NCBI RefSeq assembly: GCF_014274465.1
Contig: NZ_CP060394.1
Location: forward strand, 3,472,001-3,536,000
Length of the DNA: 64,000 nucleotides
Reading direction: 5' to 3'
Origin: Alloacidobacterium dinghuense
Lineage (GTDB): Bacteria > Acidobacteriota > Terriglobia > Terriglobales > Acidobacteriaceae
Shown in pieces: positions 48,341 through 50,747 of this stretch. Under the pieces are notes generated by a model. That model was not told the origin of the DNA, made no database searches, and saw nothing but the letters and a program-made list of their open reading frames with translations. Made by a program: the position numbers and the translations under genes. Each line of letters starts with the position of its first letter. Position 1 is the first letter of the stretch.

Positions 48341-49666
48341 TTATGCGGCTGTCTCGACAGAACGAATGTACTCAATGACGGCTTCGCTCCAGCCATCGAT
48401 ATGCGTCCACGCGCCGTAGCCCACTCCATTGCCGTAGCTGGCTACGTTGACCACGTATCCGCGTCCGTACTTCGGCGCAGGCACGCGGTCGTGAGACTGC
48501 TCGTCGGTGATAACGATCAGGCGGTCACCGCGCTCACGCAGTTCATTCAATGCACGGCTCAGCTGCGTGCCACCATGCGGCTGGCTGTGCCCAATGGCAT
48601 CGCGCAGAGCAAAGCCCCGACGTGCCGGGACTGCGGCAAGAGCATCCGAAAAGGTATAGATGCTCACCTCTTCGGCAATCTCGCGCAACAGCACCGCAAG
48701 ACTCGCAGCTGCATCCATCCGCGGCATCTCGGAACGCGCAGACAGCTTCGCGTCCATGCTGCCGGAAACGTCGATAAGCAAAATAGTCTTGCCCATCAGA
48801 CGCAACTGGCCGCTCAGGCTCGCGAACATCGCCTGCTCGATCCACGGCTCCCACTGCGGAGCATGACGCGCCGCAGCGATGAAGCGAAACGGCAGCACGC
48901 GCTCGACGCGAATCACTTCAAGCGCATAGCGCACCAGCTCCGGATCGACGCCCGCAGCCTGCATGTTGCGCAGGTTGCGAAGCAGAGCGAGAGCGCCGAG
49001 GCGGTTCTCGATCAGCATCGACTCCCACACTTCGCGCTTCTGCTCGCCACGAGACAGCCGCACCTCCCAGGTCTCAGGCGAAGGCAGTGTCCCCTCCACG
49101 AGCTGACGCCACGTGAATGACTGGTCGGCGGTCAACGGCTTTGCGTGCGTCAGAAACAGCACGTCGCGCAATTTGACCGCGCCTGCACGGTCATACTTTG
49201 CCAGTGCATACGCGTCGAACCTCGTAAAGGCCGCGGCCAGTCCCTTCTTCACCTGCGCAGACAAAGGCTGCCGTCCATCCTTCCAATAAATAGCAAGGAA
49301 CTCCGACAGTTCGTCTGCACGCTGAATCACGCGAGCCAGCGTCTCAGCTACCAGTCCGCGATGCGTGGCATAGCGGGCCATCTCACGAACCAGCAATAGC
49401 GGCGCATGGCGCAGCTTCATCTTCTCGCGCGCCTCGATAGCGAGCACAGCCACCTTCCCTGCTTCAACCCGCGGAACGAGCGCGGCGATGCGCTCGGCAA
49501 TGGTTACACCATCCTCGTAGAACTGGTCCTCCCACAACATGCAGGCCAGCACGGAGCGTCTCAACTGCTCTCCTGCGCTGATGACAACAGCGGGTGCGCC
49601 CTCATGCGTCACCAAGGGCGCTCCGCTGAATACGGGTTGACTAAGTTTCAATATATTCAGGCGCAT
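48341..49666 (-). CDS. rsr: TROVE-domain RNA-binding protein (Ro60/Rsr orthologue)
   Basis: ATG at 49666 follows GGGAGG and gives 441 residues. Residues about 15-270 form a HEAT-repeat TROVE ring: EQLRRSVLACMLWEDQFYEDG, LLVREMARYATHRGLV, SEFLAIYWKDGRQPLSAQVKKGLA, KYDRAGAVKLRDVLFLTHAKP. A von Willebrand-type domain follows with the MIDAS DVSGS (residues 299-303). Ro proteins bind Y RNAs and the ends of misfolded or structured RNAs and assist decay, with a nuclease in bacteria. The upstream region on the same strand holds the Y-RNA candidates and a small Cys protein gene. No RtcB or PNPase gene is nearby. Confidence 0.95.
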   Translation of the reverse strand: MRLNILKLSQPVFSGAPLVTHEGAPAVVISAGEQLRRSVLACMLWEDQFYEDGVTIAERIAALVPRVEAGKVAVLAIEAREKMKLRHAPLLLVREMARYATHRGLVAETLARVIQRADELSEFLAIYWKDGRQPLSAQVKKGLAAAFTRFDAYALAKYDRAGAVKLRDVLFLTHAKPLTADQSFTWRQLVEGTLPSPETWEVRLSRGEQKREVWESMLIENRLGALALLRNLRNMQAAGVDPELVRYALEVIRVERVLPFRFIAAARHAPQWEPWIEQAMFASLSGQLRLMGKTILLIDVSGSMDAKLSARSEMPRMDAAASLAVLLREIAEEVSIYTFSDALAAVPARRGFALRDAIGHSQPHGGTQLSRALNELRERGDRLIVITDEQSHDRVPAPKYGRGYVVNVASYGNGVGYGAWTHIDGWSEAVIEYIRSVETAA

Positions 49667-49753: not shown

Positions 49754-50074
49754 CTACTCACTGCCCTCCTCACAAGTGCCGGCAGTGACAGCTGCACCTG
49801 CAAAACCGACACGAGAAGTTGCCTTCACATCCTTGACATCGATGATGAATGCGATCTTTTCCAACTCGTAAAGAGTCGGGGCGAGCTTGCTGAGGTAGTC
49901 GCTGCAACGGCTGACCGGAAACGGCACCAAACGCGGCAACTCGCTAAAGTAGCCGCAGCGAATTTCCTCCTCACTCTCGGAGTAGCCCAGCTGGATGCTG
50001 GCGTAACGGCAGGTGCGGCAGAGCGACTCCTTGCCAATTGCAGTGCCGTTACGCACAGTGATGCTGATGCTCAT
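49754..50074 (-). CDS. Small four-cysteine (zinc-ribbon-like) protein in the TROVE operon
   Basis: The ATG at 50074 follows AAGGAG and gives 106 residues. The longer open frame (to 50257) runs through the Y-RNA region and is not used. Four cysteines are arranged as C-x2-C-x18-C-x16-C (CRTC, RCGYF, SRCSDY), which could bind zinc or a metal cluster. One more Cys lies near the end. The protein starts with a short beta-rich region and has no membrane helix. I do not recognise the family. It lies between the Y-RNA candidates and the TROVE gene, 87 bp from the latter, so a link to RNA handling is possible. Confidence 0.7.
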   Translation of the reverse strand: MSISITVRNGTAIGKESLCRTCRYASIQLGYSESEEEIRCGYFSELPRLVPFPVSRCSDYLSKLAPTLYELEKIAFIIDVKDVKATSRVGFAGAAVTAGTCEEGSE

Positions 50075-50154: not shown

Positions 50155-50262
50155 TCTCCGGGGAAGAGCAGCACGTGCGGCATTCGCTTGCGCGAACTGG
50201 CGATTCCCTTTCGCCTGCCGTACGCGGGTGGAGAGACGTATCCCGCGCCTTCACCACCGGAG
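50155..50262 (-). ncRNA. Y-RNA-like segment C (tentative)
   Basis: This third segment contains on the minus strand the box GTGGTGAAG-N4-CGGGATAC (50257-50234), the same as in the middle segment. Local hairpins CGCGGG/CCCGCG and GGCGA/TCGCC are present, and an outer CTCCGG/CCGGAG stem can close the whole. A T-loop like that of the middle segment is not seen, so the tRNA resemblance is only partial. Confidence 0.4.
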
Positions 50263-50274
50263 TTGTTCACGCCA

Positions 50275-50383
50275 GGGAAACATCGTATGCGGCTATTGCG
50301 GGTTCGAACCGCACCCTTTCGGGCTCCGACCAAGAAGTATCCGCACACTTCACCACTGGCGCATGCCTGCAATCAGTGTCCCC
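50275..50383 (-). ncRNA. Candidate bacterial Y RNA with tRNA-like module
   Basis: The minus strand of about 109 nt has a T arm with five-pair stem and seven-base loop (TGCGG-TTCGAAC-CCGCA, 50313-50297), a D arm (GCGC-loop-GTGC, 50362-50343, with the AGTGGTGAA loop that supplies A14, G18 and G19 equivalents) and a variable hairpin CCCGAAAGGG. No anticodon arm is obvious. An acceptor-like stem (TGC-A-GGC / GCC-GCA, 50371-50365 with 50293-50288) extends into a second stem (GGGGACA / TGTTTCCC, 50383-50377 with 50282-50275). This is the architecture of YrlA-type Y RNAs: an RNA stem capped by a tRNA-like module. It sits upstream of a TROVE gene on the same strand, the usual place for such RNAs. Confidence 0.68.
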
Positions 50384-50451
50384 AACATGCGCGATTTTTC
50401 GCATTTTGGGAACGCGAGGGAACGGTCGCTATGGCGGAGTTGCCGTGTCAA

Positions 50452-50477
50452 GACGAGGTATCCGCGTGCTACACCAC
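50452..50477 (-). ncRNA. Y-RNA-like segment A, conserved box only (tentative)
   Basis: Minus strand box GTGGTG-TAGCAC-GCGGATAC at 50477-50457, 121 bp upstream of the same box in the middle segment, which in turn is 99 bp upstream of that in segment C. A matching CCGC downstream could pair with the GCGG. Boundaries are not defined; only the box is annotated. Confidence 0.35.
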
Positions 50478-50483
50478 TCACTA

Positions 50484-50747
50484 TTGCAGGTAAGCTTTGG
50501 CCTGTATCGGTTTTCTGGATTTAGCAGAGGAACAACACGCCGTTATAATCTGGCGGTTGCGGACAGAATCCGGTACGAGCCGATAAGGCTATCGAGCCTG
50601 GGCTGCATATTTGGTCCGAATTGGAAGATCGTAGTCATTACAGCTTCCTCTGCCTGAAAGATAGTGGCATAGGTCACGTCGAAATTTCAAGTGGAAATCA
50701 GAAGATTTTTTGATATTTGTAACAAATTCAGATACGAATACAAACGT
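50484..50747. other. Non-coding spacer upstream of Y-RNA candidates
   Basis: About 260 bp, AT-rich toward 50700-50747, without any coding frame I can support. It should contain the promoter for the minus-strand RNA and TROVE transcripts, but no clear hexamer pair was found on that strand. A TATAAT on the plus strand at 50544-50549 has a weak -35 and no gene downstream on that strand until 51529. Confidence 0.35.

What the first reader, a model, noticed from the sequence alone, without database searches (positions are those of the whole stretch)
50155..50480. Three tandem Y-RNA-like segments upstream of a TROVE gene, the middle one with tRNA-like D and T arms
Reading the minus strand, a conserved box (GTGGTG-A/T-AG-N4-6-GCGG-ATAC) occurs at 50477, 50356 and 50257, spaced 121 and 99 bp. 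The middle segment (50383-50275) folds into a long two-part stem capped by a T arm with canonical TTCGAAC loop, a D arm with AGTGGTGAA loop and a CCCGAAAGGG hairpin, without an anticodon arm. Bacterial Y RNAs of the YrlA type have this tRNA-mimic architecture and are usually encoded next to the Ro/Rsr gene, which is found here on the same strand. A tandem triplet in an acidobacterium would be new to me. The first and third copies keep only the D-like box.
Basis: partly seen in the sequence, partly recalled or inferred. Interest (0 to 1): 0.85.

Follow-up and report, generated by a model that had tools for sequence, protein, structure and literature searches.

The report
Three tandem bacterial Y RNA genes
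Just upstream of a Ro60-type ring protein gene, this soil acidobacterium encodes three small Y RNAs in a row; the middle one imitates a transfer RNA in normal arm order, whereas the textbook bacterial Y RNA is a circularly rearranged imitation.

Summary
The finding is real and the Y RNA reading is right, with corrections. Covariance models built only from other genera pick out exactly three units in the 64-kb window, all on the minus strand: u1 50413-50482 (E 0.004; 9e-8 with a second model), u2 50270-50361 (E 1e-16) and u3 50156-50262 (E 5e-5). All three are complete units, not leftovers of a D box. The neighbouring protein folds as Ro60/Rsr. Among 61 genomes, matches to the class I model occur in exactly the eight that carry this gene. 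Arrays of up to five units are common in the family, so a triplet is not exceptional. What stands out is architecture. Window u2 hangs a tRNA-like fold (D-like arm, tetraloop mini-hairpin, T arm) on the Ro module in canonical order. YrlA is circularly permuted (T-acceptor-D), and relatives also carry an order broken in the D loop. Many short relatives end in an anticodon-loop-like hairpin. Expression, Ro binding and function are untested; the key 2014 survey could not be read, so its overlap with these variants is unknown.

The parts
50413..50482 (-). Y RNA unit 1 (short type, no T arm): closing stem GUGAG/CUCGC, bulged U, GGUGUAG box, inner helix, AUACCUC box
   Evidence: R2 hit E 0.0041, R3 hit E 9.1e-8; covariation of the class
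50443..50456 (-). hairpin UCGU-CUUGAC-ACGG in unit 1, at the place where relatives have a 7-nt anticodon-loop-like hairpin (here 6 nt, degenerate)
50270..50361 (-). Y RNA unit 2 (tRNA-like in canonical arm order)
   Evidence: R2 (other genera only) E 1.2e-16; fold z -2.5; covariation
50353..50361 (-). unit 2 closing helix S1, 5' strand CGCCAG-(U bulge)-GG; partner 50270-50277
   Evidence: 100% of cells paired, 5 of 8 pairs with double changes
50341..50348 (-). unit 2 helix S2, 5' strand GUGUGCGG; partner CCGCAUAC 50285-50292
   Evidence: 93% of cells paired, 5 of 8 pairs with double changes
50324..50337 (-). unit 2 D-like hairpin CUUC-UUGGUC-GGAG (GG in loop)
   Evidence: minimum-energy fold; stem not conserved in all relatives
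50314..50323 (-). unit 2 mini-hairpin CCC-GAAA-GGG in the place of an anticodon arm
50297..50313 (-). unit 2 T arm UGCGG-UUCGAAC-CCGCA
50156..50262 (-). Y RNA unit 3 (no T arm; extra G+C-rich hairpins): closing stem CUCCGG/CCGGAG
   Evidence: R2 E 4.7e-5
48341..49666 (-). rsr / TROVE-vWA (Ro60-like) gene; start ATG 49666 by comparison with relatives
   Evidence: PF05731; AlphaFold model matches Ro60 and D. radiodurans Rsr
49754..50074 (-). 106-aa protein with CxxC...C...C, between RNAs and rsr; conserved in place in several relatives

Best explanation
The locus is a tandem array of three Y RNA genes upstream of, and on the same strand as, a Ro60 orthologue (Rsr). Each RNA has a common Ro-side module (bulged closing helix, GGUGNAG strand, inner helix S2, WUACUUC box) and a variable head. 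In unit 2 the head is a small tRNA-like fold in canonical order (D-like hairpin, tetraloop mini-hairpin, T arm), with S2 in the place of the acceptor stem. Most likely the RNAs are held by Rsr and present their heads to partner enzymes (PNPase, tRNA-modifying enzymes or tRNA-targeting nucleases), as YrlA does. Shown: presence, structure by covariation, co-occurrence with Rsr, the Ro60 fold of the protein, and PNPase in the genome. Inferred: transcription, Rsr binding, partner binding, function.
For: A model from 8 units of other genera ranks the three window units first in 64 kb (E 1.2e-16, 4.7e-5, 0.004; next 0.67). No further match to the class I model in the whole genome at E<=1. Matches to that model in exactly the 8 of 61 relatives that have the TROVE gene, none in 53 without (Fisher 3e-10). 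154 units on the sense strand and 0 on the antisense strand in 176 kb upstream of 64 TROVE genes; a second, overlapping set of 80 loci gave 180 and 0. Covariation: 51 double-change cells against 18.9+-3.2 in shuffles and 3-6 in slid controls; 61 against 21+-4. The class II model finds 30 units upstream of TROVE genes in ten loci of non-acidobacterial records, all on the sense strand. Rfam YrlA matches units in orthologous loci at 3.6e-9, 9.8e-7 and 5.4e-6. The protein model matches Ro60 1YVR (Z 24.2), phage Ro60 9KOP (27.1) and Rsr 2NVO (20.4). PNPase present.
Against: No expression or binding data. u1 and u3 do not fold better than shuffles. The D-like stem of u2 is not conserved in all relatives. 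Unit 3 has no T arm. No RtcB in the genome, so the Salmonella-type operon context is absent. No window unit reaches Rfam YrlA.
Confidence: 0.87

Rival explanations
1. The array is a structured 5' leader (riboregulator) of the operon with the 106-aa protein and rsr, acting in cis, not a set of free RNAs.
For: Units lie upstream on the same strand; u2 and u3 are only 7 nt apart; in many relatives the last unit ends within about 70 nt of rsr. No convincing promoter or terminator between units.
Against: The number of units (0-5), their classes and their distance to the gene (to 2.6 kb) vary freely, which a cis switch would hardly tolerate; each unit has its own covarying closing helix.
Confidence: 0.1
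2. The tRNA-like heads are remnants of decaying tRNA genes in a recombination hot spot.
For: Long relatives contain complete tRNA arm sequences (GUAGCUCAG...GGUAGAGC, AGGUC, T arm), and the Rfam tRNA model reaches its cut-off once.
Against: Compensatory changes in the stems, conserved modules fused to each head, strict link to rsr; ARAGORN finds no tRNA.
Confidence: 0.03

Closest known systems
YrlA (Rfam RF02553; Salmonella, PDB 6CU1)
   Same: Encoded beside rsr; 5'/3' end pairing makes a long basal stem; tRNA-like domain with T loop. Relatives of the window locus carry units that match the Rfam model.
   Different: YrlA order is T-acceptor-D, circularly permuted relative to tRNA (PMC11472068). 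Window u2 is D-like/mini-hairpin/T with no acceptor hairpin and does not match RF02553. No rtcBA in this genome.
YrlB and other short bacterial Y RNAs
   Same: Short companion of a tRNA-like Y RNA in an rsr locus.
   Different: Sequences could not be compared here; in Acidobacteriaceae the short ones often end in an anticodon-loop-like hairpin.
Vertebrate Y RNAs (Y1, Y3, Y4, Y5)
   Same: Basal helix with a single bulged base as the Ro60 site (PMC4726728), several Y RNAs per Ro60.
   Different: No sequence homology claimed; inner domains unrelated.

Membership tests
Bacterial Y RNA (Rsr-associated) | encoded next to a Ro60/Rsr (TROVE) gene | tested here: met
Bacterial Y RNA (Rsr-associated) | 5' and 3' ends pair in a basal stem with a conserved bulge | tested here: met
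   covariation
Bacterial Y RNA (Rsr-associated) | binds Rsr | not testable with these tools
   needs pull-down or EMSA
Bacterial Y RNA (Rsr-associated) | at least one Y RNA of the species has a tRNA-like domain | tested here: met
   unit 2: T-loop region conserved in 12 relatives, cloverleaf-like minimum-energy fold; D stem weak
YrlA (RF02553) | score above Rfam gathering cut-off | tested here: not met
   no hit in the region at E 10; relatives 41-52 bits against 69
YrlA (RF02553) | permuted order T arm - acceptor hairpin - D arm | tested here: not met
   window u2 has no acceptor hairpin and the T arm comes last; met in many relatives
tRNA | recognised by ARAGORN or the Rfam tRNA model | tested here: not met
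Ro60/Rsr protein | TROVE HEAT ring plus vWA domain | tested here: met
   PF05731 49.5 bits; Z 20-27 over about 400 residues
RNA-repair operon (rtcBA-rsr-yrl) | rtcB in the operon | tested here: not met
   no RtcB in the genome

The most novel reading that the evidence does not exclude
One Ro-binding module has been fitted in evolution with tRNA mimics opened at three different places: at the acceptor (canonical order, as in window u2), in the anticodon arm (YrlA) and in the D loop (relatives), plus minimal versions that show only an anticodon-like loop. The arrays would be a changing set of decoys or sensors for enzymes that cut or modify tRNAs, presented on a Ro60 ring.
Probability: 0.25. Interest if true: 0.85.

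Novelty: new variant of a known kind. Interest (0 to 1): 0.6.

Why it matters
Bacterial Y RNAs are known from few studied species, and the held sources describe one tRNA-mimic topology. These loci give a large natural set (247 distinct candidate units collected here) in which the Ro module is constant and the head varies, so it becomes testable which part of the tRNA shape is selected and for which partner. They also extend Y RNAs well beyond what Rfam's YrlA model catches, and the class I model finds no Y RNA in relatives that lack the Ro gene.

Tried and rejected
Rfam scans of the window at gathering level and of the region at E 10: nothing relevant. ARAGORN: no tRNA. Promoter/terminator scan: no more than shuffles. 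GAAG:CUUC pairing between the two boxes (a possible pseudoknot) rejected as a general feature: GAAG becomes GUAG or GCAG while CUUC stays. A possible fourth unit upstream (GCAGAGGAA...UUCCUCUGC, about 50650-50525) is better read as flanking a short peptide ORF. A remnant of the fourth unit of L002 in the window: only 9 bases match. A structure-parsing script for the D-loop-break class failed; the alignment count was used instead. PADLOC and NCBIfam: no hit for Rsr or the small protein. The main papers on bacterial Y RNAs (Chen 2014, Sim and Wolin 2018, Wang 2018, Sim 2020) are not held.

Full report
What is in the window. Each box is the 5' strand of a larger unit: closing helix S1 with one bulged base, then GGUGNAG, an inner helix S2, a GNUACUUC box, a variable head, the other strand of S2, about seven bases ending UUCCC, and the other strand of S1. 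Unit 1 is 50413-50482, unit 2 is 50270-50361, unit 3 is 50156-50262.

Is it more than chance? I collected the regions upstream of TROVE genes in the same family and scanned them for the pattern with a required S1: 154 units on the sense strand, none on the antisense strand of the same 176 kb. A second, overlapping set of 80 loci gave 180 sense, 0 antisense and one hit downstream. A covariance model made from eight T-arm units of other genera (none from the window's genus) was then run on the whole window. Its three best hits are the three units, E 1.2e-16, 4.7e-5 and 0.004; the next is 0.67. A second model, from short units of other genera, finds units 2 and 1 at 2e-9 and 9e-8, and nothing else in the 6.27-Mb genome at E 1.

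Structure. RNAalifold, without being told the structure, finds S1, S2, a mini-hairpin and the T arm in the unit-2 family; 13 of 22 pairs have compensatory changes. 51 cells carry double changes, against 18.9+-3.2 in shuffles and 3-6 when the partners are slid. The short family gives 61 against 21+-4. These shuffle counts are not probabilities, because the sequences are related; the slid controls keep relatedness and agree. With the right ends, unit 2 folds alone into S1 (bulged U), S2 (8 bp), a 4-bp D-like hairpin with GG in its loop, a CCC-GAAA-GGG hairpin and a 5-bp T arm with UUCGAAC, z -2.5. It is a cloverleaf-like fold in canonical order with the anticodon arm cut to a tetraloop and S2 where the acceptor stem would be. 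The D stem itself is not paired in every relative, so that arm is the weakest part of the claim.

The protein. The product of 48341-49666 carries PF05731. Its AlphaFold model (pLDDT 84) matches Xenopus Ro60 (Z 24.2), human Ro60 (up to 24.1), the Thermus phage Ro60 (9KOP, 27.1) and D. radiodurans Rsr (20.4) over about 400 residues. It is a Ro60/Rsr by fold. Among 61 genomes of the family, order and class, eight have the gene and exactly these eight have matches to the short-unit model; none of the 53 others has one (Fisher p 3e-10). Six of the eight contributed no sequence to that model. The genome has PNPase but no RtcB.

Relatives. In 64 TROVE loci of the family the number of clear units per locus is 0 to 5. 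The heads fall into classes. Class I is short and has no T arm. Class II is the unit-2 type. Class III has T arm, acceptor hairpin and D arm, the order of YrlA; three such units match Rfam YrlA at E 3.6e-9 to 5.4e-6, although below the curated cut-off. Class IV has, in this order, GGUAGAGC, an anticodon-arm-like hairpin, T arm, acceptor hairpin and GUAGCUC, that is a tRNA opened in its D loop. In class IV the D stem is 89% paired but without compensatory changes, while the acceptor hairpin and T arm covary. Class IV occurs in Acidobacteriaceae and in Bradyrhizobium (L188, L193). The model made from acidobacterial class II units finds 30 units in ten TROVE loci of non-acidobacterial records (Bradyrhizobium, Hyphomonadaceae and others), all sense and all upstream.

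An unexpected pattern. In the short units the hairpin after the UACUUC box has a 7-base loop in 28 of 43 cases, against 3.7 expected after shuffling. Among 21 distinct loops position 33 is U in 15, position 37 is A in 19 and position 38 is A or C in 19, while 35 and 36 vary freely. This resembles the consensus of an anticodon loop. The window's unit 1 has a degenerate version with a 6-base loop. Loops were taken from units defined without this feature, but the species are related and the test is not tree-corrected.

What it does. From published work (PMC8394870, PMC7790460): Rsr is held by the basal stem of Y RNA, the tRNA-like head of YrlA is modified by DusA and TruB, and the D. radiodurans RNP tethers PNPase for decay of structured RNA; a role of YrlA as competitive inhibitor of an anticodon nuclease has been suggested. 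The simplest reading here is the same: Rsr-bound RNAs whose heads differ in partner. Unit 2 would supply the T-loop mimic. Transcription, binding and function are inference.

Known or new. Y RNAs beside Rsr, more than one per locus, and tRNA mimicry are known. The held sources describe YrlA as circularly permuted relative to tRNA (PMC11472068). I found no held source that describes canonical-order or D-loop-broken heads, or anticodon-like loops, but the main papers on bacterial Y RNAs are not in the library, so this is unverified. I rate the window array as a new variant of a known kind.

Noticed in passing
window 50543-50638, minus strand: A 31-codon ORF (MTTIFQFGPNMQPRLDSLIGSYRILSATARL) upstream of the array is conserved as a small peptide in the genus and, more distantly, in L059 (MTIKLQFGHQMLTPRNRARVAGWILPAYAV); in the genus it is flanked by the complementary stretches GCAGAGGAA and UUCCUCUGC.
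   Followed up: partly
window 49754-50074, minus strand: A 106-aa protein with spaced cysteines (CxxC followed by two further single cysteines) lies between the RNAs and rsr in several genera and has no Pfam, NCBIfam or PADLOC match; possibly a zinc-binding partner.
   Followed up: partly
L188:3468-3614 and L193:3470-3616: Bradyrhizobium loci carry the D-loop-broken tRNA mimic next to permuted ones, so that form is not confined to Acidobacteria.
   Followed up: partly
short units in L057-L116, for example in L059 and L079: Hairpin loops with anticodon-loop consensus (CU-GNN-AA/AC) and variable middle bases in short Y RNAs.
   Followed up: partly
L002:1-4398 (reverse strand, about 1007-1140): A sister genome has a fourth, permuted (YrlA-like) unit that the window and L003 lack: fast turnover of units within a genus.
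   Followed up: partly
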